Shown: piece after piece, positions 853-16,663 of the stretch
How positions within the stretch are numbered: position 1 is the stretch's first letter
How the letters are laid out: each line of letters starts with the position of its first letter
Source: a bacterium
GTDB lineage: Bacteria; Spirochaetota; Spirochaetia; JABEVK01
Reading direction: 5' to 3'
NCBI GenBank assembly: GCA_021781625.1
Contig: JAJXWL010000021.1
Coordinates: 1 to 16,663, forward strand
Length of the DNA: 16,663 nt
Notes under the pieces: generated by a model
Told to the model about the DNA's origin: nothing
What the model saw: only the letters and a program-made list of their open reading frames with translations
Database searches by the model: none
Made by a program: the position numbers and the translations under genes

Positions 853-861
853 ATAGGCCGT

Positions 862-1371: not shown

Positions 1372-1854
1372 GTGCGACGATTTCGCCTTTTTGTTGATCT
1401 AGATGGAGTCCTAGCAGATTTTGACCGTGGTGTCTTGGAGGCAACAGGACGCTACCCTACGCAGATGTCCGATCGTGAGATGTGGCCTTTGGTGGCTAAA
1501 GTCTCTGGTTTTTACGAACACTTACCCTGGATGCCCGATGGGCGCCAACTGTGGGAATATGTGGTCCCCTTTAACCCTATCATTTGCACAGGCTTACCGC
1601 GTGGAAACTGGGCAGAGCCACAAAAACGTCAGTGGTGTCGCCGTGAACTTGGCACTGAAGTGCCCGTCTTGACCTGCTTAAGTCGTGATAAAGGTCAAGC
1701 CGCCCGTGAATTCCTCGACGCGGACGAGACCCCAATTCTTATCGACGATCGCTTAAAGTCTCAGCCCGGCTGGGTCGATCTGGGAGGGCTCTTTGTCCTC
1801 CACACCTCTGCCCAAGACAGCATTCAAGCCCTCCGGGAATTAGGGTTGGCATGA
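1372..1854 (+). CDS. HAD-family 5'-nucleotidase-like phosphatase
   Basis: This 160-residue protein has the haloacid dehalogenase phosphatase motifs: motif I VDLDGVLADF with nucleophile D9 and acid D11, motif II threonine T73 in ICTGLP, a lysine near K107 (SRDKGQ), and motif IV acids D125/D126 in ILIDDR. Size and spacing resemble the 5'(3')-deoxyribonucleotidase branch, cytosolic enzymes that dephosphorylate nucleoside monophosphates; the substrate cannot be read from sequence. The GTG start is supported by GGGAGGGG a few bases upstream and a promoter match just before it. Its stop overlaps the next start by four bases (ATGA), so translation should be coupled to the (p)ppGpp synthetase that follows, which suggests a shared role in nucleotide turnover. 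Confidence 0.8.
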   Translation: MRRFRLFVDLDGVLADFDRGVLEATGRYPTQMSDREMWPLVAKVSGFYEHLPWMPDGRQLWEYVVPFNPIICTGLPRGNWAEPQKRQWCRRELGTEVPVLTCLSRDKGQAAREFLDADETPILIDDRLKSQPGWVDLGGLFVLHTSAQDSIQALRELGLA

Positions 1855-3050: not shown

Positions 3051-3062
3051 TAGCGTAAGTTT

Positions 3063-4250: not shown

Positions 4251-4288
4251 TTTGGAGTTAGCATTTGGTTAGCGGCTTCTCAAAATGA

Positions 4289-4324
4289 TTGACCGGCAGG
4301 ACAACTCGTGTTATTCTTGGTGAC
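4289..4324 (+). promoter_or_regulatory. Promoter placing transcription start at GTG 4325
   Basis: TTGACC (4289-4294), 17 bases, TATTCT (4312-4317), then 7 bases to GTG at 4325. A transcription start 7 bases past the -10 would fall on the start codon, giving a leaderless mRNA. The -35 box occupies the only upstream in-frame start candidate (TTG 4289), which argues against initiation there. Confidence 0.6.
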
Positions 4325-4633
4325 GTGGAACAGGATACAGTTTACGGAAAAATTTATTGTGCGAATTGTGCTCACTGCAAAGTCGTCCGTGTTCCAGCTG
4401 GGGACGGTAGTCAGTACCTGCTTCGCGTGCGTTGTGCGGCGGGCAAGTGGAAAACCAAAAACGGTGAAGACAAACTTTACAAGTATTTTACTTTAACCCG
4501 ACGCAGCCTTCTGACGTGCGAGTCGTATTGCTCAATGGGAGATACCCGAGGGTATCTGCGACAATTAAGGTCACTGTTGCCGCAAAAAGACGAAACCTAT
4601 ACCCAAAATTCTGAAACTCTTCCTTCTTCCTGA
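4325..4633 (+). CDS. Small cysteine-rich protein of unknown function
   Basis: A 102-residue protein when started at GTG 4325. It has a cluster CANCAHC (C12, C15, C18), a further cysteine in VRCAAGKW (C37) and two more in TCESYC (C65, C69). This pattern could hold zinc or an iron-sulfur cluster. The core (IYCANCAHCK, RVRCAAGKWK, LYKYFTLTRR) feels like a conserved small family I recall from treponemes, but I cannot name a function. A TTG at 4289 would extend it by 12 residues, but that codon lies inside a good -35 box and the extension has no Shine-Dalgarno, so 4325 is preferred. It has no signal peptide, so it is likely cytosolic. Its stop lies in the first copy of an 18-bp tandem repeat. Confidence 0.65.
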   Translation: MEQDTVYGKIYCANCAHCKVVRVPAGDGSQYLLRVRCAAGKWKTKNGEDKLYKYFTLTRRSLLTCESYCSMGDTRGYLRQLRSLLPQKDETYTQNSETLPSS

Positions 4634-4667
4634 TGTTTATTCTCAGTAAGATGTTTATTCTCAGTAA
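4632..4667 (+). repeat. Perfect 18-bp tandem duplication
   Basis: GATGTTTATTCTCAGTAA occurs twice back to back (4632-4649 and 4650-4667), starting within the stop codon of the cysteine-rich gene and lying 33 bp before the lipoprotein ATG. Each copy contains TATTCT, and the copy boundaries create TAAGAT and TAAACT, all -10-like. Confidence 0.95.
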
Positions 4668-4700
4668 ACTGAAATCTCTTTATCCCCAAAGGATGTTCTC

Positions 4701-5105
4701 ATGAAAAGGTTCTACTTTTTGGGAGCTACGGTTGCTCTGTTGCTCTCTTTGTCTGCCTGCAAAACCATCGACACCAATTTAGCGCCCAATACCCCCACCG
4801 AGGTATATTTTCAACGCGCCCAGCAGGCCTCTGATGAGTATGAGTACCAGGATTCTTTGAAAATCTATGCTGAATTGCTGGCGAGAACGGACATCGACAT
4901 GAATACTCGTGTTTCTGCACAGTACGAAGTGGCCTTTCTCCATTTCAAAATGGGGGATTATCCCCTGGCCAAAGAACAGTTTCAAAATATCTTAAAACTT
5001 TACAATGATCCGACCCTTAGCAACTTGCCCATTTGGGTGCAGATCCTTTCCACCAAGATTCTGAAAGAAATAGAAACGGGGAAAAAGGCAAACCGCGTTA
5101 AATAA
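4701..5105 (+). CDS. Lipoprotein with TPR-like repeats
   Basis: A 134-residue protein with a lipoprotein signal peptide: basic MKR, a hydrophobic stretch and lipobox LSAC with the acylated cysteine at 20. Residues about 33-110 form helical TPR-like pairs (VYFQRAQQASDEYEYQDSLKIY, then AQYEVAFLHFKMGDYPLAKEQF). It is probably a periplasm-facing lipoprotein that scaffolds other proteins; it recalls BamD-type TPR lipoproteins but is far shorter, with room for only two to three repeats. AAAGGA eight bases before the ATG supports the start. It ends 15 bp from the convergent VWA gene with no terminator between them. Confidence 0.75.
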   Translation: MKRFYFLGATVALLLSLSACKTIDTNLAPNTPTEVYFQRAQQASDEYEYQDSLKIYAELLARTDIDMNTRVSAQYEVAFLHFKMGDYPLAKEQFQNILKLYNDPTLSNLPIWVQILSTKILKEIETGKKANRVK

Positions 5106-5120
5106 GCTTTTGCCATTCCT

Positions 5121-6230
5121 CTAATTGCCGCCATTACCGCCAGGGGGAAGTTTCACAATTTGAATTTCCACATTCTTTTCCAGGGCGGTTTGGTGTACCA
5201 TGGCTTCAGTAATCGAACCCCGAGGCAAATTGTGCTGAGGAGCATCGCCAATCACTAAGATCAACCGATGTCCAGCTTGCCAGTCAAACGAATTGAGGGC
5301 AGACCAAAGCCCTTCGACCACAGCTTCGGGGATGTCACCGCCCCCAGCGGCAGTGGCTTGATTCAAAGCCTTTTGGATCACGGAGACATCTGACTGAAAG
5401 GTCACCACTTGGGTAAGATAATCCTCCATATAATCTCGGTAAAAGACTAACCCCAGCCGAAAGTGTTGAAAATTTTTGGCTTCCTGAGAAATTGGACCCA
5501 AGAAATCTTTTTGAAGCGCCTTCAAGTACTCTTTCATACTATTGGTCGTATCGATGCAAAGTACCATATCCAAATCATCTTGGACTGAACTCTGCACACG
5601 CTGTATGCCTTGCGTAATATTCGACGCTTCATAGACCGGACCAAGCCGCCTTAAACGTGCCACAGCCGAGTCGGATGCGGGCATAGGTTTAGCCTTGGCG
5701 ACCAACTGACTGAGTTCAAAGGCATTGTCTTGGTATTGCCCCGTATAATCCGCATACGGACGCGAAAACGTTCTGACCGAAAACCATAGGGCTTTTCCCT
5801 GCTGGATGAGCTGAGTTAAATCCATGCGGCCAAAACGGGCCCCCGGTTCGTGATAACCATATTCCACGACAGACGGAATCAGAATCACGAAGGCCTGGCC
5901 AAACTCTTTATCGGGAACTACCGTCGAAGAGAGTAAGTCGGTATTGGGCTGTGGCAAGAAATGACCATTTAAAAGACGTTTTTCTTGACCGTTGAGGGCA
6001 TTAGGTTCTAGACCCCGCCAGCTATAGGTCGCCAGTTTATGCCCGACTGGTTCGAACGCCTCGGTCAATAGGACTGAGTTTACGGCTGGCGTTTTCTTAA
6101 CCACCAAGTGGTACCCATCCGCGTAGGCTTCGAGGCGGACGTCTGATCCTGACAGTTTCAAGCTACTGTTTACGGTCAAGCCACTTAAGGGGAATGCCGT
6201 CAAGGCGGCCAGAAACACGATCAGCTTCAT
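5121..6230 (-). CDS. Exported von Willebrand factor A domain protein
   Basis: A 369-residue protein with an N-terminal signal peptide (hydrophobic 3-17). Residues 1-215 are beta-rich and unassigned. Residues about 220-362 form a VWA domain: strand DMVLCID, MIDAS loop D227-T-T-N-S231, the second metal-loop region GGGDIPEA (297-304) and strand LILVIGDAPQH (323-333). The DTTNSM/GGGDxPEA/GDAPxH combination belongs to a VWA subfamily that typically binds ligands through a divalent cation. It is likely periplasmic or surface-exposed. The C-terminus ends in a glycine/asparagine-rich tail (PPGGNGGN). It follows the Crp-like gene by 37 bp but has its own -10 (GATAAT) six bases before the ATG and no Shine-Dalgarno, so it may be leaderless. 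Confidence 0.85.
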   Translation of the reverse strand: MKLIVFLAALTAFPLSGLTVNSSLKLSGSDVRLEAYADGYHLVVKKTPAVNSVLLTEAFEPVGHKLATYSWRGLEPNALNGQEKRLLNGHFLPQPNTDLLSSTVVPDKEFGQAFVILIPSVVEYGYHEPGARFGRMDLTQLIQQGKALWFSVRTFSRPYADYTGQYQDNAFELSQLVAKAKPMPASDSAVARLRRLGPVYEASNITQGIQRVQSSVQDDLDMVLCIDTTNSMKEYLKALQKDFLGPISQEAKNFQHFRLGLVFYRDYMEDYLTQVVTFQSDVSVIQKALNQATAAGGGDIPEAVVEGLWSALNSFDWQAGHRLILVIGDAPQHNLPRGSITEAMVHQTALEKNVEIQIVKLPPGGNGGN

Positions 6231-6242
6231 GACGTTATTATC
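6231..6242 (-). promoter_or_regulatory. -10 element for a leaderless VWA gene
   Basis: On the - strand GATAAT is followed by AACGTC and then ATG; six bases separate the hexamer from the start codon. No convincing -35 is seen at 16-18 bp, and there is no Shine-Dalgarno. Confidence 0.5.
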
Positions 6243-6254
6243 GGAAAATTTCCG
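6242..6254. repeat. 13-bp inverted repeat in the VWA promoter
   Basis: CGGAAA-A-TTTCCG is a perfect inverted repeat with a one-base centre. It touches the first base of the GATAAT -10 and fills the spacer just upstream, where a repressor would block polymerase. The adjacent upstream gene encodes a Crp/Fnr-type regulator, an obvious but unproven candidate to bind it; the repeat is not a classic TGTGA-N6-TCACA Crp site. Confidence 0.5.
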
Positions 6255-6267
6255 GTGAGACTTATCG

Positions 6268-6873
6268 TTAACTCGCCCCTAAACTCATCAGCTTATCTAA
6301 TTCTAAGACTTCGATTTGGTTGCCGTTCCGCTTGAGGACTTGAGCCAGCACTAATTCTTCGAGAGTTTGCTGAACTTCGGACCGGGCCAAGGACAACGAA
6401 AGTGATAATTCGTCCGCCAATTTGACTTCCTCGCCGAGAAGGGTGGATTGGTGGGCTAAAACTTGCAGAGCTCCCCACACAGCCTGATGCGTCGAGTTCT
6501 GAGCTAACTTTTGAATTTGAGCATTGGCGTTTTGAAGCCTGCGGCACAGTTTGTCGATAATGCTCAAAGCAATTTTGGGGTTCTTTTCGATCATTTGCTC
6601 TAAACCTACCCGGTCAAAGGCCAGCAAGGTCGTAGGAGCCAACGTGGTGGCAGAAGCCGTCCGTTTGATTCGGTTGACGATGGCCATTTCCCCAAAGAAC
6701 TCCCCTTTTTCGAGCACGGCAATGGGAGTTTCTTTCCCGGCAATTTGACGGCTTATTTGAACTTTGCCCTCTTGAATAATGTACATTTGATCGCCTTCCT
6801 CATTTTCCTGAAAAACGGTTTGTGAAGAGGCAAGAACTTTGCCGTATTTTTGCAAAAGAGGGTTCGTTTCCAT
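6268..6873 (-). CDS. Crp/Fnr-type cyclic-nucleotide-binding regulator
   Basis: A 201-residue protein. Residues 15-110 form a cyclic-nucleotide-binding beta roll with a good phosphate-binding cassette: GEFFGEMAIVNRIKRTASATT (57-77), including G61, E62, R71 and T72. A long helix (98-125) is followed by a C-terminal winged-helix-like region (about 128-198), whose recognition segment would be SLARSEVQQTLEELV. It probably binds cAMP or a related ligand and acts on DNA as a dimer. No CxxC cluster of the Fnr iron-sulfur type is present; C110 is the only cysteine. Its ATG follows TATATT by six bases; GGAG sits only two bases from the ATG, too close for a normal Shine-Dalgarno, so leaderless initiation is likely. 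The VWA gene lies immediately downstream. Confidence 0.85.
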   Translation of the reverse strand: METNPLLQKYGKVLASSQTVFQENEEGDQMYIIQEGKVQISRQIAGKETPIAVLEKGEFFGEMAIVNRIKRTASATTLAPTTLLAFDRVGLEQMIEKNPKIALSIIDKLCRRLQNANAQIQKLAQNSTHQAVWGALQVLAHQSTLLGEEVKLADELSLSLSLARSEVQQTLEELVLAQVLKRNGNQIEVLELDKLMSLGAS

Positions 6874-6888
6874 TTCTCCAATATAATC
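6874..6888 (-). promoter_or_regulatory. -10 element for a leaderless Crp-like gene
   Basis: The - strand reads GATTATATT, six bases (GGAGAA), then ATG. The same nine bases precede the PilZN-like gene at 14812-14820 at the same distance. No good -35 is visible at 17 bp. Confidence 0.5.
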
Positions 6889-6958
6889 AAAACCTTCATC
6901 CGGAGCGAGAGCGGTTTCACCGAGAACTGAAGCACAACTAAGTCCAGCCCCGTTTCCT

Positions 6959-6968
6959 TTCCTAGGAA
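6959..6968. repeat. 10-bp palindrome over a ribosome-binding site
   Basis: TTCCTAGGAA is a perfect palindrome that contains the AGGA Shine-Dalgarno of the gene starting at 6975. It could be a protein-binding site; a hairpin would be short (about 4 bp in CCTT...AAGG). Confidence 0.35.
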
Positions 6969-6974
6969 GGTGCT

Positions 6975-7964
6975 ATGAATCCTCTTTATGCCACGACAAA
7001 ATCCTGTTCTAGGGTCTGCCTCTTTTTCTTGTCAACCCTGCTTCTTGGCTGCCAAGTCTTTGCCACAGCGGCTCCGGCCCGCTTGCTCGACTTTCAATCT
7101 GAAGAGCGGACTTTGGGCTTTACGTTTGATCATCCTCTCAAAAGCGCTCACATGACCACCGAGCCACCCGACTTGCTTTCACCAGCCATACTCCAAGGCA
7201 ACCGAGTGAGCCTCAAGCGGCAAGTGGAACCACCGGGGCAAGAAATCCGCTATTCGCTAGAAGTCCAGGATGCTCAAGGGACAGTGACAGGTATCCAAGG
7301 GAGCTATTGGGGCCTTAACCCTCGTGTAGCCCTCTTACGACTCTCAGAAATCCGCACGGCCGGAAATAGCCGAAACCCAGATGCCCTTGAGCTAGAAGTT
7401 GTCAAAGCAGGGTCGCTAGCGGGACTCTGCCTGGATTTGACTTCACCTGGTAGGTTTGAACGCTTTAACTTTCCCGAACAAGACGTTCAAGCGGGACAGT
7501 TTTTAGTTTTGGTGGCGGGACCTCGTTGCCCATCTCCCCTACCCGGCAAAGTGTTTTTTTGGGCTATCCCCGGTTTGACCAATCAAGGTCTGTTGGTCTT
7601 GCGCACCGCCCCCGACAAAGGCGCCCAAGATGCCTTTTTATGGGGTAAAGACCTCAAACGAGCCTCATCGCTCCTTCAGGTGTATCATCACCGGGAACCT
7701 CGAGCTTGGACTTCACAGGCTCCCTGGACCGGACCTCCGTGGTGGCCAGAGGGAGCAACGGCCACAAGGACTTGGTGTCGACTAAAAGAAAGCGCAAGTC
7801 CCGCTGGAGTAAGCCAATGGCTGTTGGTGGCCAATGGGTGCCAAACCTTGGGGAAGGCCAACCGGCTAATTCCCTACGAAGAAAGTCCTGGTAAGACCCT
7901 CAGCGCCAAGGTCGCCAAGAAGAAAAAGACCAAAAAAGGCCGTTCCCCGCAGGCTCCCAAGTGA
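6975..7964 (+). CDS. Exported protein with a lamin-tail-like domain
   Basis: A 329-residue protein with an N-terminal export signal; LLLGC at 22-26 could be a relaxed lipobox, or cleavage may occur near ATA-AP (about 33). Residues about 119-215 resemble a lamin-tail domain: LRLSEIRTAGN, NPDALELEVV, LAGLCLDLTS, then VQAGQFLVLVAG. Such immunoglobulin-like domains occur in exported bacterial proteins and are thought to anchor or bind. The C-terminus turns strongly basic (AKVAKKKKTKKGRSPQAPK), and this tail overlaps the convergent gene by 65 bp. The ATG follows AGGAAGG, a good Shine-Dalgarno. The region upstream has a weak promoter match (TTTCAC, 17 bp, CTAAGT). I cannot assign a specific function. 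Confidence 0.65.
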   Translation: MNPLYATTKSCSRVCLFFLSTLLLGCQVFATAAPARLLDFQSEERTLGFTFDHPLKSAHMTTEPPDLLSPAILQGNRVSLKRQVEPPGQEIRYSLEVQDAQGTVTGIQGSYWGLNPRVALLRLSEIRTAGNSRNPDALELEVVKAGSLAGLCLDLTSPGRFERFNFPEQDVQAGQFLVLVAGPRCPSPLPGKVFFWAIPGLTNQGLLVLRTAPDKGAQDAFLWGKDLKRASSLLQVYHHREPRAWTSQAPWTGPPWWPEGATATRTWCRLKESASPAGVSQWLLVANGCQTLGKANRLIPYEESPGKTLSAKVAKKKKTKKGRSPQAPK

Positions 7965-8283
7965 AGTAAGCAATACGACCCGTTTGCCAGGTGTAAGGTG
8001 GAACGGAAAAGACCGTCCAGTCTTCAGGAGCTTTCCAGCCCAGCCAAAACTTTAGTCCTGGCAAAGGGCCTTCTAAGTAAGGACCTTCTTCACGGGGCAA
8101 CCATTTGCCTAACGAGATTTCAACCAATTCAGTTTTAGTGGGAAAAGGGGTGTTTTCTGGGGCCATGAGTAGTGGCGGGAAGGCACGGAAGGTGTCACCC
8201 ACCTTGAGGGCGACGTCCTCTTGAAACCTTAAGAGGCGAACATCTCCCTGGGGTGGAAGCCACACCCAACGGGATTTCTTCAT
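7900..8283 (-). CDS. Small protein of unknown function, tryptophan/proline-rich
   Basis: A 127-residue protein starting MKKSRWVWLPPQGDV at ATG 8281-8283, supported by AAGGA seven bases upstream; a longer version from 8316 would overlap the divergent gene's start and lacks that support. It is rich in Trp, Pro and Phe and has no signal peptide or transmembrane segment. I recognise no family. Its 3' end overlaps the convergent lamin-tail gene by 65 bp, and its promoter region abuts the divergent gene at 8315, with a possible -10 (CATAGT) overlapping that gene's -10 on the opposite strand. The reading frame, start signal and placement support a real gene; a role is not evident. Confidence 0.6.
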   Translation of the reverse strand: MKKSRWVWLPPQGDVRLLRFQEDVALKVGDTFRAFPPLLMAPENTPFPTKTELVEISLGKWLPREEGPYLEGPLPGLKFWLGWKAPEDWTVFSVPPYTWQTGRIAYFTWEPAGNGLFWSFSSWRPWR

Positions 8284-8301
8284 TTTTTCTTTTCCTTGTG
8301 G

Positions 8302-8307
8302 TACTAT
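8302..8307 (+). promoter_or_regulatory. -10 element for the gene starting at ATG 8315
   Basis: TACTAT, then seven bases, then ATG at 8315. The upstream ATG at 8306 overlaps this hexamer and would lie upstream of the predicted transcript, so 8315 is the better start. The -35 region is T-rich without a clear hexamer. Confidence 0.4.
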
Positions 8308-8314
8308 GCCTGCC

Positions 8315-9085
8315 ATGATTCAGAAAATCAACCGCTTAGTCGAGAGTCTTTTGCAGGGCTTTAAAACCTGGCCCCACCTCGAAGCTGTGCAAAAGATTCC
8401 CTATCAAAGCTACTCAGAAGCTTTATTTGAATTTGCCAGTATCAAACTCGATGTCTTTCTTGAGGGGTCGATTCCCCCTCAACAAGACCGAATCCAGCTC
8501 TTTCCCCCCCACGAGTTTCTCGAAACCTCTTTAGCCGAAACCAAGGACCGTTTTTTCCTCGAAAGTCTGCCGGTCCACATTGAATATAAGAAGACTCGTG
8601 ATCTTGAAGCCTTACTGAAGGGTATTCGAAATGAACCTTTCACGTTGTTACAAGGCTCCACCTACGGTTTGTACCGCCTCTTGTGGGGTGTCCCAGTCTT
8701 TTCGCGATCGGGTTGGGTGGATCAACAAAAGCAAATACTCGAGTCACTTCCTGAGGCTTTTTGGCAATGGCACCTGAACAACCTGAAAGCTCGGCTTGAA
8801 CATTACGTAGCGGACCTGGGCACGGCCCTATTTCATCAAGACCCCTTACAGTTCCCTATCAGTTTAGCCCAACTGCTCGAGACCGTGACAGAACTTGTGT
8901 TGAGTTCTCATCACCAATTTCTGTGTCCCCCTGAACAGCGGCTGAGAAGCTTGGAAGCTTTGCCGAACTTGCCCTCAGGCTTTATGGGCTTATTGAATTC
9001 TTTAATTCGCACGGACGGGGCCCTGGATCAAGAAAGAAAGCTCACGGTAGCCCGAAAACTGGTCGAACAACTTTTGAGTTTGTAA
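8315..9085 (+). CDS. Probable degenerate nucleotidyltransferase-fold protein
   Basis: A 256-residue cytosolic protein. The middle and C-terminal parts recall the helical portion of DUF4037-like nucleotidyltransferases: GLYRLLWGVPVFSRSGWV, then HLNNLKARLEHYVADLGTAL, then HHQFLCPPEQRLRSLEALPN. The N-terminal segment (YSEALFEFASIKLDVFLEG) sits where such enzymes carry GS...DxD, but only one aspartate of that signature is present, so catalysis is doubtful. The family call is from memory and tentative. The start at 8315 rather than 8306 is chosen because the earlier ATG lies within the -10 hexamer. Its TAA is immediately followed by the ATG of the secreted HExxH protein, so the two are probably co-translated. 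Confidence 0.5.
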   Translation: MIQKINRLVESLLQGFKTWPHLEAVQKIPYQSYSEALFEFASIKLDVFLEGSIPPQQDRIQLFPPHEFLETSLAETKDRFFLESLPVHIEYKKTRDLEALLKGIRNEPFTLLQGSTYGLYRLLWGVPVFSRSGWVDQQKQILESLPEAFWQWHLNNLKARLEHYVADLGTALFHQDPLQFPISLAQLLETVTELVLSSHHQFLCPPEQRLRSLEALPNLPSGFMGLLNSLIRTDGALDQERKLTVARKLVEQLLSL

Positions 9086-10612
9086 ATGCGCATCCTCTTG
9101 GCGGTTTTGCTTCTTGGCGGCAATATTCCCTTCCTTTTGGGGGCGGATGTATTTCGCCAAGAAAATCAGCAAAGCTTTCTAGAGCGCCAACGAGTGACCT
9201 GGAACGGACAAACTTCGAGCTTTGAGTGGGTCCTTCCCCAACTCGCCCCAGGCAACTGGCTAACCTTGGGCCCCCTTCCCCCGGGTCAGATCACCTTACA
9301 AATCGACCCCGAAACCCAGGGAGCAGAAGTCCACTTTCCAGAAGTTTCGGGAATCCAGGTATGGCTGGCCTGGAAACTTCCCTTCCAAGTTCATCGCCTT
9401 CGCCTCATCACCTCGGGGCTTATCCCTCCCCCGCTTACCCTAAGTCTACAAAAACACTTGTCGACGCAGGAGCCTCTGGTAGCCCTTTCAGGCTCCACCT
9501 TGACCTTTTCTCTGCCCCCCTGGCATACAGCGTCTGGTTTCACCTCCGCCTTAGAGCTGTCTTGGGCTCATAATACGGGGTTTACCTTGCAGGCGAATCG
9601 GCTTGACCAAAAAGACGCCTCGGTAAAGTTTCATTTCTCGGCTCCTACAGGGACTTGGTTCTACTACCCTCAAGTTTGGAAGACCTCAACCCGCCGTTGG
9701 TTGGTCACCGTCCAGGGTGACCAACAGGTTCCTTTGACTCGTCTTCGCCTTGCCGCAACGGCTCCCCAAGACCCCCTTCCGGTAGACCTCGCAACACTTC
9801 TTCACTGGCCAACTCAAAGCTTTCGAAACCAAGAGCAAGAGTGGTTTCTTTGGCAAGGGCAAAAGAACATTTTGATTTTGTTGACTAAGGACTACGCCCT
9901 TCAAGCTCGGTTTTTGACACGACTAGCCTTCTTTGTCGAGAAACAAAACTACCGAGGGAGGTTCTTAACCTTAGACGAGGCCGCTAAGTTGCACGGTTGG
10001 AATGCCCATGATTACGCCCCAGAAGATTTGGCCAATTTCTTTAATTTAGCCAGTGCCGAAAACTATGCCTTATCCCCTCAAGAGCAAGAACTTCGGCAAC
10101 GGCTTGAACAGCAAAAAATCTTGATCCTCACCTCGCCGGGGCACTGGAAAGGCGGCGAAGGCGCCCTATTAGGGATCAGTGAAGAATCACCGCCTCCCTT
10201 GCGAGCTTTTTTGTTGACACACGAAAGTTTTCACGGCTTGTATTTCACAACCCCTCAGTATCGCAGTAGTGTAGCCAGGATTTGGGCTTCACTTCCCGAA
10301 GCTTGCCGTCAACAATTTCGCAATTTTCTTGCCGCTTCATACTATGATGTGACGGATGCGGCTTTGGTTGTGAATGAATTCCAGGCCTACAGCCTTCAGC
10401 AAGACTCGGATGGCTGGGAAGATTTCTTTCGTGACAAAGTATTGAAGGCCCCCAGTTTAATGGCTCATAATGAACTTCTTGCGGCGTATTTAACCGCCGC
10501 AAAAGAATTAGATCAAACCGTCTTTGAAGATTTTGGTTTTCATTCGGGTGAGCTTCAAGACCCGGTAGTTTTCTTTGCCGGCAAAAACAACCGCACTCTC
10601 GCTCCCCCTTGA
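9086..10612 (+). CDS. Exported protein with HExxH zinc-peptidase signature
   Basis: A 508-residue protein with a signal peptide (MRILLAVLLLGGNIPFLLGA, cleavage near 20). Residues 30-240 are beta-rich. The C-terminal half contains LLTHESFHGLYF, with H379-E380-x-x-H383 as a zincin motif, and VVNEFQAYSLQQ with E431 placed 47 residues later as a plausible third zinc ligand, the gluzincin arrangement. This suggests a periplasmic or surface metallopeptidase, or a descendant of one. I know of no named family for the whole protein. It abuts the preceding stop (TAA-ATG) without a Shine-Dalgarno, implying translational coupling. Its last 58 bp overlap the end of the convergent receiver-kinase gene. Confidence 0.65.
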   Translation: MRILLAVLLLGGNIPFLLGADVFRQENQQSFLERQRVTWNGQTSSFEWVLPQLAPGNWLTLGPLPPGQITLQIDPETQGAEVHFPEVSGIQVWLAWKLPFQVHRLRLITSGLIPPPLTLSLQKHLSTQEPLVALSGSTLTFSLPPWHTASGFTSALELSWAHNTGFTLQANRLDQKDASVKFHFSAPTGTWFYYPQVWKTSTRRWLVTVQGDQQVPLTRLRLAATAPQDPLPVDLATLLHWPTQSFRNQEQEWFLWQGQKNILILLTKDYALQARFLTRLAFFVEKQNYRGRFLTLDEAAKLHGWNAHDYAPEDLANFFNLASAENYALSPQEQELRQRLEQQKILILTSPGHWKGGEGALLGISEESPPPLRAFLLTHESFHGLYFTTPQYRSSVARIWASLPEACRQQFRNFLAASYYDVTDAALVVNEFQAYSLQQDSDGWEDFFRDKVLKAPSLMAHNELLAAYLTAAKELDQTVFEDFGFHSGELQDPVVFFAGKNNRTLAPP

Positions 10613-11754
10613 GGTAAGTTGTCCACTTGAACTTTTCCCCCTAGGGTCAAGACAATTAAGTCGACCAAGGAGAGTCCCAAACCCATTCCCTCCGAATGAT
10701 TCATGATCCCCCCCGAAAGAAAGGGCTGAAAAATATTGGCCAAAGCATAATCAGAAAAACCGGGACCATTATCCTGTACCGCTAAGACTAGCCATTCACC
10801 GGATCTTTCCAGCGAGATTCGAACCTCGGGGGTTTTTCCGGCGTATTTTTGAATATTCTCAAACAAATTGAACAAGGCTTCTTGCAACAAATCTTCGTCA
10901 CAGCGGAGTTCCAGGATTTCTCCCTGCACGTGGTAGACAGCCTTTGGAGCCTCGGGATACTGTTCTTTCAGCCGACGACAAGCTTTTTCTACCAAGTCCT
11001 TCAGAGAGATTTGATGGTACTCAAGCTGGCGCACAGAGGTCGATATTCCGGCATATTCCAAAGCTTTTTTGGTCGAGCGTTCTAGCCGCTGAGCAGAGTC
11101 ATCAACAAATTTTAAAAACTCTTTAGCCTCGTCTTGGACCACGTAAGGTTTTAACATTTCAATAAAACCTAAAATCCCGCTTAACGGCGTGCGAAGTTCA
11201 TGACTGACCAGGGCCACCATGTTCGAACGAGCTTCCTCGAGCCGATGAATTTGATAATACGCCTCTTGAAGTTCTTGAGTTCGCAAGGCGACTTCTTTCT
11301 CTAAACGGCGTTGATGCCGCTGTTCCAAATCTTGATTACGAACAAAAGCCAACTCTTTTCTGAGCATGGCCAAAAGCATATGCCAATCGATGGGTTTCAG
11401 AACAAAGTTTCCTACACCGAGATTGATTAAAGGAATCAAATGCCTAGCTTCACTGTAGGCCGAGGTAACCAAGAAGCTTTGCTGAGGCTTGAGTTTTTGA
11501 ATTTCTTGAATCAGGCCAATCCCATCCAACTCAGGCATGCTGATATCGGTGATCACCACAGAAAACGATTCTTGAGAAAACCTCTGAAGGGCATCTAAAC
11601 CGTTTTCTGCCGTTACCACCTTGGGAAAGATCGATTGAAGAATTTCAGCGACTTCAGAACGCACGCTGGCTTCATCTTCCACATAAAGAACACTCGAGTC
11701 TTCCGCGAGTTTCAAGAGCTCCGAAAGGAGGGGGTCACGTACCGTTGTGGGCAT
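10555..11754 (-). CDS. Receiver-histidine kinase hybrid
   Basis: A 399-residue cytosolic signalling protein. Residues 20-135 are a CheY-like receiver with acidic residues E26/D27, phospho-acceptor D70 (VITDISMPELDG), T97 and K120. Residues 140-178 form a coiled coil. The HisKA domain holds phospho-histidine H185 in SHELRTP. The HATPase domain (about 250-393) shows N-box N296/N300, DNGPGF (328-333) and GMGLGLS (356-362). All catalytic residues are intact. No DNA-binding output or membrane segment is present. It overlaps the upstream kinase gene by 20 bp, and its own Shine-Dalgarno (CAGGAG, 7 bases before the ATG) lies within that gene. The receiver is likely phosphorylated by the neighbouring kinase, forming a relay whose final target is not in the window. 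Confidence 0.92.
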   Translation of the reverse strand: MPTTVRDPLLSELLKLAEDSSVLYVEDEASVRSEVAEILQSIFPKVVTAENGLDALQRFSQESFSVVITDISMPELDGIGLIQEIQKLKPQQSFLVTSAYSEARHLIPLINLGVGNFVLKPIDWHMLLAMLRKELAFVRNQDLEQRHQRRLEKEVALRTQELQEAYYQIHRLEEARSNMVALVSHELRTPLSGILGFIEMLKPYVVQDEAKEFLKFVDDSAQRLERSTKKALEYAGISTSVRQLEYHQISLKDLVEKACRRLKEQYPEAPKAVYHVQGEILELRCDEDLLQEALFNLFENIQKYAGKTPEVRISLERSGEWLVLAVQDNGPGFSDYALANIFQPFLSGGIMNHSEGMGLGLSLVDLIVLTLGGKVQVDNLPQGGARVRLFLPAKKTTGS

Positions 11755-12820
11755 TTTCTAGCTCCTGAGGAAATTCGAGTAAAAATTTCGTCCAATTATC
11801 ATGACAAGACACCGTCAGGTGCCCCTCATGAAAATCTTCCACAATCATCTTGGCCATATATAACCCCATGCCAGCATTCTCTTGCTTGGACGTAAAGTAG
11901 GGGTCAAAGATTTTCGAAGTCAGGGAAGGATGAATCGCACCACCATTGTTCTCAATCAGAAGAAAAGCTTTGCCCTCTTGAGTATGTGCCTTCAGAATGA
12001 TCCGAGGCCTTCCGACATCTTGCTCCGCAAACGCGTCTCCGGCGTTCTGAAGAATTTCGAGGATAGCTTGAAGGATTTCTCCAGCAAACCCATTCAAGGG
12101 GATATCCTCACTAGAAAACTCCAAATCGACGTGAATGCCTTTCTTTTGGAAATTGGAGTGTAAGAGGTTTACAGCTCGGGAGGCCAGTTCACATAAATTG
12201 TGACGTTTAGCAATCCCTAAAGACGTATAAAAACCTCGGAAGGTATCAATCGTTTGCGAAAGTGATTGCACGGTGGCCGTCACTTTATTGAGTTTTTCAT
12301 GTAAATAGTCGTGATCCAGGGTACCGAGTTCCATTTTTAGCTGGACATTTCCCACCAAAGAATTGATAAGCGTCAGGGGTTGCCGCCATTCATGGGCAAT
12401 CAGACTTAAAAGATCGCCCATTTGAGCTTGGCGGGAACGGATTAACAGAATACCTTGTTCCCGTCGCTTCGCTTCTTCACGCATGACGTCTTGTGTGGTA
12501 TCCGCATGGACCACGATGTATAAGGGATTTCCGCTTTGGGGAACGAGGGGAAATACCGTAATTGTATCAATAAAAAGGTCCTCTCCCCGAGAAAGCGACA
12601 CAGAAGTACGCCAAAGCGGAGATTTTTTTGCCTGGTCCCACCAATCTGCCTCGGTAAGAAGCAAAAAACTCGGACTTTTTTGTCCTAAATAATCTTGATA
12701 ATTTTGAGAAAAATATTGAGAAAAAAAAGGATTCGCATACAAAAGCACCCCCCCTTCGTCCAAAATCTCAATGGGGAGCGGACATTGATCAAGAACGAGC
12801 GATAAAGCCGAGTTGTCCAT
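11735..12820 (-). CDS. PAS-domain histidine kinase
   Basis: A 361-residue soluble sensor kinase starting MDNSALSLVL. Residues 5-110 look like a PAS fold (LPIEILDEGGVLLYANPFFSQYF, then GNPLYIVVHADTT). The dimerisation domain carries H143 in LIAHEWRQPLTLI, the HEWRQP variant typical of NtrB-like soluble kinases. The HATPase domain shows EILQNAGDAF (N259), ENNGG (290-294) and GMGLYMAK (317-324), so it should be active. The ATG at 12820 is chosen over GTG 12838 because TACAAT lies six bases upstream of it and neither has a Shine-Dalgarno. The signal sensed by the PAS domain is unknown. The receiver-kinase encoded next is its likely phosphorylation partner. Confidence 0.88.
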   Translation of the reverse strand: MDNSALSLVLDQCPLPIEILDEGGVLLYANPFFSQYFSQNYQDYLGQKSPSFLLLTEADWWDQAKKSPLWRTSVSLSRGEDLFIDTITVFPLVPQSGNPLYIVVHADTTQDVMREEAKRREQGILLIRSRQAQMGDLLSLIAHEWRQPLTLINSLVGNVQLKMELGTLDHDYLHEKLNKVTATVQSLSQTIDTFRGFYTSLGIAKRHNLCELASRAVNLLHSNFQKKGIHVDLEFSSEDIPLNGFAGEILQAILEILQNAGDAFAEQDVGRPRIILKAHTQEGKAFLLIENNGGAIHPSLTSKIFDPYFTSKQENAGMGLYMAKMIVEDFHEGHLTVSCHDNWTKFLLEFPQELENAHNGT

Positions 12821-12832
12821 AACGTTATTGTA
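12821..12832 (-). promoter_or_regulatory. -10 element for a leaderless PAS-kinase gene
   Basis: TACAAT, six bases (AACGTT), then ATG on the - strand. ATAACGTTAT is a 10-bp palindrome across the predicted transcription start. No clear -35. Confidence 0.5.
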
Positions 12833-12858
12833 ACCCACTTTTGGGGAAAGAAAAGGGG

Positions 12859-12887
12859 TTTACATACTCAGCTTTTCTATGTTAGTT
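12859..12887 (+). promoter_or_regulatory. Promoter of rpmB
   Basis: TTTACA (12859-12864), 17 bases, TTAGTT (12882-12887). It gives a leader of about 25-30 bases containing the GAAGGGG ribosome-binding site. Confidence 0.5.
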
Positions 12888-12920
12888 TGCCTTTCTAGAG
12901 TTTCTGTGAAGGGGTTTCTT

Positions 12921-13148
12921 ATGGCCAGAAGATGCGATATTTGCGGCAAAGGAACAATGTTTGGTAATAATGTTCCACGCAAAGGTCAGCCGAAGAAGCA
13001 GGGTGGCGCTGGACAGCACATCGGGGTGAGAACCCTGAGAACTTTTAAGGCCAATATTGTGAATGTCAAAACCAGCTTGAACGGGACTGTACAGACCATT
13101 AAGGTTTGCACTTCGTGCCTAAAAGCCAATAAGGTACAAAAAGCCTGA
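12921..13148 (+). CDS. rpmB: Large ribosomal subunit protein bL28
   Basis: A 75-residue protein, MARRCDICGKG at the N-terminus and KVCTSCLKANKVQKA at the C-terminus, typical of ribosomal protein bL28. Two CxxC pairs (C5/C8 and C63/C66) form the zinc-binding version of the protein. Relative to short bL28 forms, residues 18-38 (a Lys/Gly-rich loop, PRKGQPKKQGGAGQHIG) look like an insertion. ATG 12921 has GAAGGGG six bases upstream; an upstream in-frame extension to 12879 has no such support. It is monocistronic, with its own promoter and a strong terminator. It is divergent from the kinase operon and convergent with the metallohydrolase gene. Confidence 0.95.
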   Translation: MARRCDICGKGTMFGNNVPRKGQPKKQGGAGQHIGVRTLRTFKANIVNVKTSLNGTVQTIKVCTSCLKANKVQKA

Positions 13149-13194
13149 TAGGGAATGCTGTCAGACAAGACGTTCTCGCGCTTTCTACGGAGAG

Positions 13195-13223
13195 AAAAAC
13201 CGGCATTGTGCCGGTTTTTTTTT
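13195..13223 (+). terminator. Bidirectional rho-independent terminator after rpmB
   Basis: An 11-bp perfect stem (AAAAACCGGCA / TGCCGGTTTTT, loop TTG, 13195-13219), followed by T's to 13223. On the other strand the A run gives TTTTTCT, so it should also stop the convergent metallohydrolase transcript. Confidence 0.9.
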
Positions 13224-13258
13224 ATTCCTCTAAATCTTTTATTTCTCTAAATCCACAA

Positions 13259-14017
13259 TCATAAATCCACTATCAAACCATCCCAGGCGGCAAGAATCCC
13301 TTCAGGGAGCCGGGCTTGGAGTTCCTCATGACGAATCTCGTGCCCAATGTGCGTTAAAACTGTTTTGCCCGCCCCTAGCTGCCGCGCTAATTGTACGGCC
13401 CCTTCAAAGGTTAAATGTGTGGGATGCGGAGTCCATTGTAGTCCATCCAAAAAAAGTACTTCGAGTCCTTGCAACTGTTCGAGGCTGGCCGGGGGGAGTC
13501 CCGAGCAGTCGGTGACATAGCCCATTTTCCCAATTCTAAACCCCAGGATCTGATCTTTTCCATGGAATACCTTGACAGGTAAGACCTCAAGCCCCGAGGC
13601 TTCGAAACGTTGACCAGCACGAATTTCATGGACGCGAAGCTTCGGTCTAGAATTCAGGCTTTCGCCGGTGGTAAAGGCGTAAGGAAACATTCTATTCAGT
13701 TGATGAAGTAAATTTTGTTCCGCCCAAATATCTATACCCTGACGGTATGAAAGGGGTCTCAGATCGTCTAACCCCAAAATATGGTCCGCGTGCCCATGCG
13801 TATAAAATACGCCTTCTAACCTGGTTAACCCCACCCGTAAAGCTTGGACCCGAAAGTCAGGGCCCGTATCGATGACCCAATTCTTACCCTGGTCGCTAAT
13901 GAGCAACGAGGATCTTAAACGTCGATCACGAGAGTCTGGCGAGGTGCAGAGTGCACACGAACAACCTATGACGGGCAAACCTGTTGAGGTTCCTGAGCCT
14001 AGAACAGTGAATCTCAC
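13259..14017 (-). CDS. PhnP-like metallo-beta-lactamase-fold hydrolase
   Basis: A 252-residue cytosolic protein starting MRFTVLGSGTSTGLPVIGC. The metal-binding motif THGHADH (H74, H76, D78, H79) is followed by GLDDLRPL, H152 (FHGKD), D170 (VTDCSG) and H223/H226 (LTHIGHE), the residues needed for a dinuclear site. The N-terminal cysteines C19, C21 and C24 match the position of the extra structural zinc site of PhnP-type phosphodiesterases. The likely reaction is hydrolysis of a phosphodiester or cyclic phosphate; a full phosphonate pathway is not in view, so a specific substrate is not claimed. The GTG start overlaps the preceding stop (GTGA, positions 14014-14017), implying coupling with the PilZN-like protein. 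Confidence 0.85.
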   Translation of the reverse strand: MRFTVLGSGTSTGLPVIGCSCALCTSPDSRDRRLRSSLLISDQGKNWVIDTGPDFRVQALRVGLTRLEGVFYTHGHADHILGLDDLRPLSYRQGIDIWAEQNLLHQLNRMFPYAFTTGESLNSRPKLRVHEIRAGQRFEASGLEVLPVKVFHGKDQILGFRIGKMGYVTDCSGLPPASLEQLQGLEVLFLDGLQWTPHPTHLTFEGAVQLARQLGAGKTVLTHIGHEIRHEELQARLPEGILAAWDGLIVDL

Positions 14018-14805
14018 GTAGCTTCGCCTGCCTCAGCGGCCTTCTTTTTTGCCAAAACGGTTTTTCGAAATTGATAATCTTCGAGTAACGAAAGCAATTC
14101 ATTCGAATAGTCGAGGGACAAGCTTCCTTTAGCATTCGACTTCCCCGTCACAGTCAGTACACCCGAGCGAAAGTACAGCTTTAGGTGCAACTCTTGGGCT
14201 TCGTCGGGGGCTTCGGAGGCTTCAGGTAGCACAAATTCTACAGACTTTGGGCTTAACGTTTTCAAGGTAATTTTCCAACGCTTTTCCCCCTGCCACAATT
14301 CTGCATAATGGTTGTAGCCTAGCAAAGTCGCTTCGGCGGCATCCAACAGGATTTTGGTCTCCCACTTTTGATAGGCTTCAAATCGTAATTCTTGCTCTTC
14401 CCAATATTGCCCCAAGATTTGAACCAACTCAGCAGGGGTTGTCAAGAACTTCACTTGCAACAAGCAGACATTTTTGCGTTCGGGAAGAGGGGTAATCGAC
14501 TGAAGATGAACTTTGATATGAAAGCGTGCGGTTTCTTTTTGTTCAGGATTCTCAAAGACCAAAACCAAAGTATTGATCGTCGAAAGAAAACGAGAAAACA
14601 GCGTCACTTCGGAAGGGGTCAAAACGCCCAAGAGCTGAGCTCCCTGCAATCCTAGCAGCCCAGGAACCACAGTTAAGTTGTATTCCCCCAGTTTTAAGAG
14701 AGTTTGGTGAGGGACTAGTCTTGTTCGCCGTTGAAAATACGGATCAACCTTGACTTGACGGTCGGCGAACTTAGTCTGGAGCTGCTGAACGTCATAGACC
14801 TGCAT
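14014..14805 (-). CDS. PilZN/PilZ-like protein, binding residues missing
   Basis: A 263-residue soluble protein starting MQVYDVQQLQTKFADRQVKV. The N-terminal 135 residues fit the PilZN domain found before PilZ in spirochaete c-di-GMP receptors (QQLQTKF, LVPHQTLLKL, then KVHLQSITPL and VKFLTTPAELVQILGQYW). The C-terminal part (about 139-245) has the size and strand order of a PilZ barrel but lacks the RxxxR and [D/N]xSxxG residues that hold c-di-GMP: ELRFEAYQKW and TLSPKSVEFV stand at those places. The start at 14805 is chosen because a longer frame would run into the divergent gene and TATATT lies six bases before this ATG. It is translationally coupled to the metallohydrolase (overlap GTGA). 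The family assignment is from memory. Confidence 0.55.
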   Translation of the reverse strand: MQVYDVQQLQTKFADRQVKVDPYFQRRTRLVPHQTLLKLGEYNLTVVPGLLGLQGAQLLGVLTPSEVTLFSRFLSTINTLVLVFENPEQKETARFHIKVHLQSITPLPERKNVCLLQVKFLTTPAELVQILGQYWEEQELRFEAYQKWETKILLDAAEATLLGYNHYAELWQGEKRWKITLKTLSPKSVEFVLPEASEAPDEAQELHLKLYFRSGVLTVTGKSNAKGSLSLDYSNELLSLLEDYQFRKTVLAKKKAAEAGEAT

Positions 14806-14820
14806 ACTTCTAATATAATC
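14806..14820 (-). promoter_or_regulatory. -10 element for a leaderless PilZN-like gene
   Basis: GATTATATT, six bases (AGAAGT), then ATG on the - strand; the same nine-base -10 region and spacing precede the Crp-like gene. It lies back to back with the promoter of the divergent gene. Confidence 0.5.
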
Positions 14821-14827
14821 TCTCCTC

Positions 14828-14862
14828 TTGCACTCTGCTAGACTCCCCTTTAGAGTGAGCGT
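14828..14862 (+). promoter_or_regulatory. Promoter of a leaderless membrane-hydrolase gene
   Basis: TTGCAC (14828-14833), 17 bases, TAGAGT (14851-14856), then exactly six bases (GAGCGT) to ATG 14863. Both boxes and the spacing fit sigma-70, and no Shine-Dalgarno lies between the -10 and the ATG. Confidence 0.7.
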
Positions 14863-16305
14863 ATGCGATTTTGGGAAACGGCCTTTTTGCTTAGCCTTTT
14901 GGCATATCATCTCGCCCTCTTGGCTCCACGTCGACGCCGCGCGTTAGCTTGGAACTGGCTTGCCCCCTTAGCTGGCTTACTCGCCCTCATTTCAGCCCAG
15001 TTTGAAGGTTTACGGTGGACGACGATGCCAGCCTGGGTCATGGTCATTCTGGATATCCTCGTCCTGATGTTCAGTTTTAGAACACTCAAAGGCCGTCCCC
15101 AACGTAAAGGCTTTTGGAAAGCTCTTCGCTCTACCGTACGACTCGTCGTGGTCTCCGTCGCCCTGGTCGCGGTTTTGGCTATTGTCTCCCTTTCTTTTTG
15201 GTTTCCCCTCCCGGTAAACAGTTGGTCAGGTCCCTTTAACTCTGCTTTACGGATAGAATCTCTCCCCACAGGCCTTTCTGGGGACTCTAAACTTGGGGAC
15301 GCTAAACCTGGGGACTCTAAACCCACCAACCTTCTTCTTTGGTATCCGGCTTCCGGCAACCTGAGTCCCGGAATACGACCCTTACAAACGAGAGCCGCCT
15401 GGGTCACGCTTCAAGAACGCGGAGGGCCTCCGCCCTTCTTAGATTCCCATTGGGCACTCTTACCCTCTGGAAATCCGACTCATTTTATTCAAGGCGGTAA
15501 ACTTGCAAGACAAGCGAGCCAGTTCCCTGTTGTGCTTTTGATTCCTCCCCAAGGCACACCGGCTTGGGAATACGAATATGTCGCTGAGGATTTTGCTTCG
15601 CAAGGTTTCGTGGTGGCTTCCCTCTCCGCCCCCCTCAAAGATCCCGCCCCCAAAACGGTTTTTCAAGATCTAGCGGCTTTTGTTCGCTCGTTTGCTTGGG
15701 GCCCAACTTTTTGGAATTCGTTCTGGTACCTCGAACAACAGCAAGCTAAAGCCCTCAACCGCCCCGTCACAGAACAAGCCGAACAATTAAAGACCGTCCT
15801 AACTCAAATGGCCGAAACACCGGGGAGTTTTTTGTACCAAGGTGTGGATTTGACCAAAATTGCCCTTTGGAATGCTGGGGCAACACCATTGGATTGTACT
15901 CCCCTTGCAGCACAAGGGTTCAAGGTCTTAATTACACCCTGCGCCCGTCAGACTGGTTCCATGACCATACTTCAAGTCCCTTATTCGGGTGAAAGTTTTG
16001 CTCCTGGGACCGGACCATCCGTATGGACACTGAAAATTCGGGGCTTACACCCTGCCGATTTAACGGACATGGCTTTTCTCAAGCCTTACTTAGCCTTCTG
16101 GAACCTCAAGGGCCGATTTGATGCGCATCCCCAGCTCTTATTCCGCGCTTATGCCGGTACGTTCTTCATGAAGGCTTTTTACTCCCCTGGGCGTAAGTTT
16201 ACCGAGGATTTACCCCTTTTAGAGGAAGTCTCAGTGACTCACAATTTCCCCGCCGGAAGTAAATCGTCCCAAACTAACCCTTCACCCGCAGAGATTTCTC
16301 GCTGA
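14863..16305 (+). CDS. Membrane-anchored alpha/beta-hydrolase-like protein, no catalytic serine
   Basis: A 480-residue protein with about four hydrophobic segments (7-22, 31-46, 56-72, 92-115) and then a large domain resembling platelet-activating-factor acetylhydrolase-type alpha/beta hydrolases: FPVVLLIPPQGTPAWEYEYV, AEDFASQGFVVASLSAPL, and a C-terminal segment (LKGRFDAHPQLLFRAYAGTFF). In that fold the nucleophile sits in GxSxG; here the corresponding IALWNAGATPL (336-340) has no serine, and the oxyanion-hole SHG is replaced by IPP. A histidine (H396, RGLHPADLTD) remains where the catalytic histidine would be. It is therefore probably not an esterase but a binding protein. A threefold GDSKP-type repeat lies at about 140-154. 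The last 67 bp overlap the convergent neuB gene. Confidence 0.6.
   Translation: MRFWETAFLLSLLAYHLALLAPRRRRALAWNWLAPLAGLLALISAQFEGLRWTTMPAWVMVILDILVLMFSFRTLKGRPQRKGFWKALRSTVRLVVVSVALVAVLAIVSLSFWFPLPVNSWSGPFNSALRIESLPTGLSGDSKLGDAKPGDSKPTNLLLWYPASGNLSPGIRPLQTRAAWVTLQERGGPPPFLDSHWALLPSGNPTHFIQGGKLARQASQFPVVLLIPPQGTPAWEYEYVAEDFASQGFVVASLSAPLKDPAPKTVFQDLAAFVRSFAWGPTFWNSFWYLEQQQAKALNRPVTEQAEQLKTVLTQMAETPGSFLYQGVDLTKIALWNAGATPLDCTPLAAQGFKVLITPCARQTGSMTILQVPYSGESFAPGTGPSVWTLKIRGLHPADLTDMAFLKPYLAFWNLKGRFDAHPQLLFRAYAGTFFMKAFYSPGRKFTEDLPLLEEVSVTHNFPAGSKSSQTNPSPAEISR
15280..15324 (+). repeat. Three 15-bp tandem repeats inside the hydrolase-like gene
   Basis: Units at 15280-15294, 15295-15309 and 15310-15324 share GGGGAC[TG]CTAAAC[TC][TC] and encode five residues each (GDSKL, GDAKP, GDSKP). 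They sit in a linker between the last hydrophobic segment and the hydrolase domain and keep the frame, so copy number could vary without breaking the gene. Confidence 0.9.
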
Positions 16306-16663
16306 AGAGGGCGACCAAGCACCAGATCTAAAAATTGAGGCGGTAACCCAGGCCGGAGAATCTTTTCTGTCCGAAGCACAGCAACATCCTCTGGCGTGAT
16401 CACATGTCCAGGTCTTAACGTTCTTACCACATGCAAACTGCGGTTTGTCCGTTCGTAGTGGACTTTCTCGCTGGGTGCCAGCTCTTTTTTACCGCTACCT
16501 AAGATCAGGTCTAGGTGCTTTCCAAACTTGTCCCGGGCCCACTGGTGTCGTTCGATCTCGGGCACAGCCTCACCTTCGCGAACAGTTTTTACCATGAGTT
16601 GAAATTGCTGGGGGTCCAAAGCTATGGGATCATCTAAACCAGGGTCACCCCGATCAAGACAGA
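16239..16663 (-). CDS. neuB: NeuB-family sialic acid (nonulosonate) synthase, 3' part
   Basis: The frame is open across the window edge, so the 5' end and most of the catalytic barrel are outside. The visible 140 residues begin LDRGDPGLDDPIALDP, the NeuB segment that follows the barrel (family pattern LDR..PG.D...L.P). Residues QFQLMVKTVREGEAVPEI continue the linker, and then comes the C-terminal SAF (antifreeze-like) domain: RSLHVVRTLRPGHVITPEDV, LDLVLGRPLQREISAGEGLVWDDLL. NeuB/PseI/LegI enzymes condense phosphoenolpyruvate with a hexosamine to make a nine-carbon sugar acid used in surface glycans or flagellin glycosylation; the substrate class cannot be told from the SAF domain alone. The stop overlaps the convergent hydrolase-like gene by 67 bp. 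Confidence 0.85.
   Translation of the reverse strand, partial: CLDRGDPGLDDPIALDPQQFQLMVKTVREGEAVPEIERHQWARDKFGKHLDLILGSGKKELAPSEKVHYERTNRSLHVVRTLRPGHVITPEDVAVLRTEKILRPGLPPQFLDLVLGRPLQREISAGEGLVWDDLLPAGKL

What the first reader, a model, noticed from the sequence alone, without database searches (positions are those of the whole stretch)
4289..14863. At least seven genes appear to have leaderless mRNAs
In seven places a -10 hexamer ends exactly 6 or 7 bases before a start codon with no Shine-Dalgarno: GTG 4325, ATG 6230(-), 6873(-), 8315, 12820(-), 14805(-) and 14863. Two (4325 and 14863) also have clear -35 boxes at 17 bp. Other genes (1372, 4701, 6975, 8283, 11754, 12921) have ordinary Shine-Dalgarno sites. 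Leaderless first genes alternating with led internal genes suggests a dedicated initiation mode common in this organism, and it also corrects several gene starts.
Basis: partly seen in the sequence, partly recalled or inferred. Interest (0 to 1): 0.7.

Follow-up and report, generated by a model that had tools for sequence, protein, structure and literature searches.

The report
Leaderless genes in an uncultured spirochaete
Several neighbouring genes of an uncultured spirochaete have their promoter pressed right against the start codon, so their messages probably begin at the start codon itself; this is a known bacterial habit that appears widespread in this class of bacteria.

Summary
All seven sites have a -10-like hexamer ending exactly 6 (five genes) or 7 (two genes) bases before the start codon. 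In a syntenic relative, L001/G001 (72% DNA identity), all seven keep hexamer position and spacing: hexamers differ at 1 of 42 bases, spacers at 16 of 44. ATG 3063 is an eighth candidate. In a 0.86 Mb sample of G001 the spacing peaks at 6; the gene-level excess over decoy spacings is 7.9% of 573 genes there and 12.6% of 415 in relative G073, enriched at divergently transcribed genes. Across 118 genomes of G001's class, the -35/-10/N6-7/ATG arrangement outnumbers N12-13 in 117. Best explanation: sigma70-type promoters making leaderless mRNAs. Not supported: a 'dedicated' initiation mode, or 'leaderless first genes alternating with led internal genes' (four led genes are first genes). Leaderless genes are already described in spirochaetes (PMC3160421; PMC5243855), so this is a new member of a known kind, with useful start corrections and a class-level count. 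No RNA 5' end was available.

The parts
3051..3056 (+). candidate -10 TAGCGT (preceded by TGA, extended -10-like), N6 before ATG 3063; eighth candidate, weak hexamer
   Evidence: hexamer and spacing same in L001
4289..4294 (+). -35 box TTGACC of the 4325 gene (17 bp spacer)
   Evidence: same in L001
4312..4317 (+). -10 TATTCT, N7 before GTG 4325
   Evidence: TATCCT-N7-GTG in L001, spacer differing at 6 of 7 bases
4325..4633 (+). leaderless ORF, 102 aa cysteine-containing protein, relatives in spirochaetes, function unknown
   Evidence: relative P0241 (91%) is annotated from the matching GTG
6237..6242 (-). -10 GATAAT, N6 before ATG 6230
5121..6230 (-). leaderless ORF, VWA-domain protein
6880..6885 (-). 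-10 TATATT, N6 before ATG 6873
6268..6873 (-). leaderless ORF, cyclic-nucleotide-binding (Crp/Fnr-type) protein
8302..8307 (+). -10 TACTAT (TGG before it, extended -10-like), N7 before ATG 8315
8315..9085 (+). leaderless ORF, no Pfam match; alternative in-frame ATG 8306 overlaps the -10 and is also present in L001
12827..12832 (-). -10 TACAAT, N6 before ATG 12820
11735..12820 (-). leaderless ORF, histidine-kinase ATPase-domain protein; upstream GTG 12838 is GTA in L001
14812..14817 (-). -10 TATATT, N6 before ATG 14805
14014..14805 (-). leaderless ORF, PilZN3-domain protein
14828..14833 (+). -35 box TTGCAC of the 14863 gene (17 bp spacer); TTGCGC in L001
14851..14856 (+). -10 TAGAGT, N6 before ATG 14863
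14863..16305 (+). leaderless ORF, 480 aa, hydrophobic N-terminus by eye, no Pfam match

Best explanation
Each of these genes has its own sigma70-type promoter whose -10 element begins 12-13 bases upstream of the start codon. RNA polymerase starts about 7 bases after the -10, so the transcript begins at, or one base before, the start codon and has no leader and no Shine-Dalgarno site. Ribosomes then recognise the 5'-terminal start codon directly. Shown here: the motif, its exact spacing, conservation of hexamer and spacing while the spacer sequence changes, and an excess of that spacing in relatives and across the class. Inferred from general knowledge: the actual transcription start and the ribosomal route.
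For: All seven sites present and kept at the same spacing in L001; hexamers 1 of 42 vs spacers 16 of 44 differences, Fisher p 6e-5. For GTG 4325 the spacer differs at 6 of 7 bases and the L001 frame has five extra codons, yet -35, -10 and N7-GTG stay. G001 sample: TANNNT before candidate ATG peaks at d=6 (43 of 753; d=7 18; other d from 0 to 25 about 2-16); -35 matches >=4 of 6 in 24 of those 43; TTG-N19-21-TANNNT-d-ATG counts 50 at d=6, 27 at d=7 and 9-19 at the other d from 3 to 15. Gene-level excess over decoys 7.9% of 573 (G001) and 12.6% of 415 (G073), enriched at divergent genes. Best-match relatives in the family of G001, G001 included: crp 5 of 5 full-length and pilZN3 4 of 6 have TANNNT-N6-ATG. 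Class: N6-7 total 11519 vs N12-13 total 5800; 117 of 118 genomes in that direction, 103 at p<0.01. Leptospira interrogans has about 440 genes with a mapped TSS within 10 nt of the start (PMC5243855, passages).
Against: No RNA 5' end data. Without a -35 the signal is weak: TANNNT-N6-ATG 237 vs 174 control and TATAAT-N6-ATG 1 vs 1 in the G001 sample, the latter 11 vs 4 in whole G001. No peak for GTG starts with a -35 (10 at d=6, 14 at d=7, 7-16 elsewhere), so GTG 4325 rests on its own conservation. Clear -35 boxes exist at only two of seven sites, and a generic promoter scan found fewer sites than shuffles and only one of the seven. 2 of 6 pilZN3 relatives lack such a site, and of 30 Spirochaetota crp loci only 6 have it. 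One genome of 118, G060, goes the other way (75 vs 101).
Confidence: 0.9

Rival explanations
1. The genes have ordinary leaders: transcription starts further upstream and the -10-like hexamers next to the start codons are chance or AT-rich start-region composition.
For: TANNNT is a weak motif; TANNNT-N6-ATG without a -35 is only 237 vs 174 in control.
Against: Spacing peak at d=6 with matching -35 boxes; phase-matched decoy spacings do not show it; hexamers conserved while spacers change; no SD match at six of the seven sites and only GTGA at 14863.
Confidence: 0.05
2. The hexamers are promoters, but transcripts carry a short leader of 2-10 bases because RNA polymerase starts before the start codon, or the true start is a nearby downstream codon; translation is helped by a weak SD or another route.
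For: 6873 has GGAG 2 bases before ATG and 14863 has GTGA at gap 4; in L. interrogans about half of the roughly 440 such genes have UTRs of 2 nt or more (PMC5243855, passage).
Against: N6 is the commonest spacing, which by the usual -10 geometry puts +1 on the start codon; spacer sequences are not conserved.
Confidence: 0.12
3. A dedicated initiation system (special factor or ribosome) serves a regulated set of leaderless genes in this organism.
For: Functions at the window sites lean to signalling (Crp/Fnr type, histidine kinase, PilZN3).
Against: Sites look like ordinary sigma70 promoters; the arrangement is class-wide and also seen in a Nitrospirota MAG, G120 (66 vs 4 reversed control). No factor or common operator was looked for.
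Confidence: 0.03

Closest known systems
TA-led (leaderless) bacterial genes, Zheng et al. 2011 (PMC3160421; passages seen)
   Same: TANNNT around 12 bp upstream of the start, read as leaderless; Spirochaetes already listed (6 of 18 genomes, mean 3.9% of genes in those, range 1.8-6.9).
   Different: Here an uncultured family; excess of 7.9% and 12.6% of genes in samples of two MAGs, by a different method, and a class-wide excess in 117 of 118 genomes.
Leaderless mRNAs of Leptospira interrogans (PMC5243855, 2017; passages including part of the abstract seen)
   Same: Same phylum; about 440 genes with TSS within 10 nt of the start codon.
   Different: Measured by dRNA-seq there, only predicted here. 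The abstract passage says motifs other than sigma54 were not identified there.
-10 motif adjacent to ORFs in Deinococcus-Thermus, Zhong et al. 2025 (PMC12340547; outline, introduction and one results section seen)
   Same: TANNNT about 6-7 bp before the ORF; wrongly annotated starts corrected by the motif; -35 optional.
   Different: About one third of genes in D. radiodurans; fewer here.

Membership tests
Leaderless (TA-led) bacterial gene | TANNNT-like -10 ending 6-7 nt before the start codon | tested here: met
   7 of 7 (one as GATAAT)
Leaderless (TA-led) bacterial gene | no usable Shine-Dalgarno site | tested here: met
   no SD match at 6 of 7; 14863 has only GTGA at gap 4; 6873 has GGAG at gap 2, outside the tested range
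Leaderless (TA-led) bacterial gene | genome-wide excess of the spacing over chance | tested here: met
   on relative G001 (860,654 of about 2.6 Mb); the window's own genome is not held
Leaderless (TA-led) bacterial gene | -10 and spacing conserved in orthologues | tested here: met
   7 of 7 in L001; crp 5 of 5, pilZN3 4 of 6 in the family; crp 6 of 30 in the phylum
Leaderless (TA-led) bacterial gene | transcript 5' end at the start codon | not testable with these tools
   no RNA data
Leaderless (TA-led) bacterial gene | translation from a 5'-terminal start codon | not testable with these tools
   no proteomics or ribosome data
Dedicated leaderless initiation system | special factor, ribosome or common regulatory motif | not tested
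   not searched for

The most novel reading that the evidence does not exclude
Leaderless initiation is an ancestral, class-wide mode in Spirochaetia, used by very roughly a fifth to a third of divergently transcribed genes in this family (my subtraction of decoys: 30 of 155 in G001, 30 of 104 in G073), with genes such as crp and pilZN3 switching between leaderless and led starts; some divergent pairs pack two promoters and no leader into under 65 bp.
Probability: 0.4. Interest if true: 0.45.

Novelty: new member of a known kind. Interest (0 to 1): 0.27.

Why it matters
If true, gene starts in many spirochaete genomes may be misplaced, because gene finders tend to expect a Shine-Dalgarno site; the -10-N6-ATG rule would correct them and give the promoters at once. 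The ancestry of leaderless starts within a whole class becomes testable with orthologous genes that differ in mode. It does not need a new mechanism.

Tried and rejected
The window's own genome is not held, so counts were made on relatives. The first genome-contig scan with the MBL-fold protein found no relative; the CRP alignment did. TATAAT-N6-ATG as a counting pattern was too sparse and TANNNT alone too noisy, so a -35 TTGA was added. A preferred distance for back-to-back leaderless pairs was looked for: 6 pairs at inter-hexamer distance 30-39 in the G001 sample against about 1.6 in control, too few to claim, and 2 in the G073 sample against about 1. One search's generic promoter scan found fewer promoter-like sites than shuffles (9 vs mean 12.5) and listed only the 4325 promoter among the seven, so generic consensus scanning does not see most of these sites.

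Caveats on counts: my ORF callers are simple and gave 657 and 573 genes from the same 860,654 bases; the percentages are excess over decoys and count only TANNNT with ATG/GTG starts. In G073, 14 of 72 hits lie within 25 bases of a same-strand gene (3 of 85 in G001), so not all hits look like first genes. Of 31 Spirochaetota crp loci, 30 were examined (L027 lacks the start); the 6 of 30 was counted by eye, two of the six coming from one MAG. In one search, 8 crp loci out of the 29 given were read, and three (L152-L154) were dropped as paralogues or lacking the N-terminus; orthology of the rest is by best match. The class of G001 is not named by the tool; Spirochaetia is my reading of the record titles. 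Literature searches that ran; no claim is made that something is absent from print.

Full report
What was checked. The window comes from a spirochaete metagenome assembly: its best named protein matches are Spirochaetales MAGs and its nearest held relative is contig JABEVK010000069.1, Spirochaetales bacterium isolate MAG 30 (L001), syntenic with window 1179-16663 at 72% DNA identity. The window's own genome is not held.

The seven sites. All are present as described: TATTCT-N7-GTG 4325, TACTAT-N7-ATG 8315, GATAAT-N6-ATG 6230(-), TATATT-N6-ATG 6873(-), TACAAT-N6-ATG 12820(-), TATATT-N6-ATG 14805(-), TAGAGT-N6-ATG 14863. -35 boxes at 17 bp stand before 4325 (TTGACC) and 14863 (TTGCAC). Among the 17 starts that I listed, 7 have a -10-like hexamer at N6/N7, against 32 of all 736 ATG/GTG triplets; this comparison is partly circular because four of the seven starts were not the longest-ORF choice. 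Three listed starts (1851, 9086, 14017) have neither the hexamer nor a good SD; they overlap or abut the gene before them. ATG 3063 is an eighth candidate: TAGCGT-N6-ATG, preceded by TGA, same hexamer and spacing in L001, though the hexamer is weak.

Conservation. In L001 every one of the seven hexamers sits at the same distance from the start codon. The hexamers differ at 1 of 42 bases, the 6-7 base spacers at 16 of 44 (Fisher p 6e-5). The most telling case is 4325: in L001 the spacer differs at 6 of 7 bases and the frame has five extra codons, yet TTGACC-N17-TATCCT-N7-GTG is intact. The relative P0241, from an ncbi contig of the same length as that of L001, is 107 aa against 102 and begins at the residue this GTG encodes. 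The longer alternative TTG 4289 is the -35 box itself and its frame runs into TGA in L001; the longer alternative GTG 12838 is GTA in L001. For CRP, the database prediction P0122, identical to the window's protein, starts at M30, while P0124 starts ten codons early with MALPFDYIGD; FDYIGD is what TTTGATTATATTGGAGAT would encode, so that prediction probably reads through the -10 (inferred; its DNA was not seen). Both are errors expected when gene finders meet a leaderless start.

Orthologues. In the seven genomes that the tool groups as the family of G001, G001 included, crp has five full-length best matches (41-84% identity) and all five have TANNNT-N6-ATG; pilZN3 has six and four have it, the other two having a purine-rich SD-like stretch instead, by eye. 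Over 30 Spirochaetota crp loci, 6 have the arrangement and most others show an SD-like stretch by eye. So the mode is steady inside the family for crp but differs in the wider phylum.

Genome level. In 860,654 bases of G001 (of about 2.6 Mb), TANNNT before candidate ATG starts is found 43 times at d=6 and 18 at d=7 among 753, the other distances from 0 to 25 giving about 2 to 16. At d=6, 24 of 43 have a -35 with at least 4 of 6 matches. Counting TTG-N19-21-TANNNT-d-ATG on both strands for d = 3 to 15 gives 9, 15, 12, 50, 27, 16, 19, 10, 11, 12, 17, 14, 10. The same count for GTG shows no peak, so leaderless GTG starts are not shown to be common. At gene level, 85 of 573 genes have a hit against 32-46 at five decoy spacings (excess 7.9%); in G073, 72 of 415 against 10-25 (12.6%). 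About half of the hits are at divergently transcribed genes: 41 of 85 in G001 against 11 of 41 decoys, and 36 of 72 in G073 against 6 of 24 decoys.

Class level. The pattern TTGA-N18-20-TANNNT-N6-7-ATG was counted in 118 genomes drawn by the tool from the class of G001 and compared with N12-13, which keeps codon phase. Totals are 11519 and 5800; 117 of 118 genomes have more of the first, 103 at binomial p<0.01; the median ratio is 2.1 and G001 ranks 20th with 3.1. G060 is the exception (75 vs 101). A Nitrospirota MAG also shows many (66 vs 4 reversed control), an Acidobacteria MAG few (13 vs 4). The arrangement is therefore private neither to this organism nor to spirochaetes.

The led genes 1372, 6975, 8283 and 12921 lie next to opposite-strand genes (for 1372 a tRNA gene) and are themselves first genes; leaderless 6230 is 37 bp and leaderless 4325 is 74 bp downstream of a same-strand gene. 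The rule 'first genes leaderless, internal genes led' does not hold; what fits is that leaderless genes have their own promoter. No sign of a dedicated initiation machinery was seen, and none was searched for.

What is known. PMC3160421 (Zheng et al. 2011, passages) describes TANNNT around 12 bp upstream of starts as the mark of leaderless genes and lists Spirochaetes with 6 of 18 genomes and 3.9% of genes on average in those. PMC5243855 (2017, passages) mapped about 440 genes of L. interrogans with a TSS within 10 nt of the start. PMC12340547 (Zhong et al. 2025, outline and two sections) tested the same motif in Deinococcus. Direct binding of leaderless mRNA to the 70S ribosome and the role of IF2 are stated in PMC5397173 and PMC10783764 (passages). 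The finding is a well-supported new case of a known kind; the class-wide excess is the broader part of it.

Noticed in passing
window 14806-14862: The whole 57 bp between two divergent start codons holds two leaderless promoters whose -35 positions interleave, so both could hardly be bound at once (inference); 5 of 57 bases differ in L001 (counted by eye) against about 28% over the aligned window. Similar compact pairs occur in G001 (L085, L137).
   Followed up: partly
window 1-1178: The alignment with L001 begins at base 1179, at the 3' end of the tRNA-Ala (CGC) gene at 1178-1252(-): the stretch before it may be an insertion at a tRNA gene. Its first ORFs (1-255, 26-586) resemble pieces of one AbiEii-like nucleotidyltransferase in two frames (resemblance recalled, not searched).
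   Followed up: no
window 1851-3050: RelA/SpoT-type domain fused to C-terminal TPR repeats.
   Followed up: no
window 4325-4633: Small cysteine-containing protein with no Pfam match but 173 database matches at E<=0.001, of which 120 were listed; many of the named ones are Treponema or Spirochaetaceae hypothetical proteins.
   Followed up: no
L010: Record title says Borreliella garinii, but it is a contig of an environmental MAG at 49% GC; probably a wrong label.
   Followed up: no
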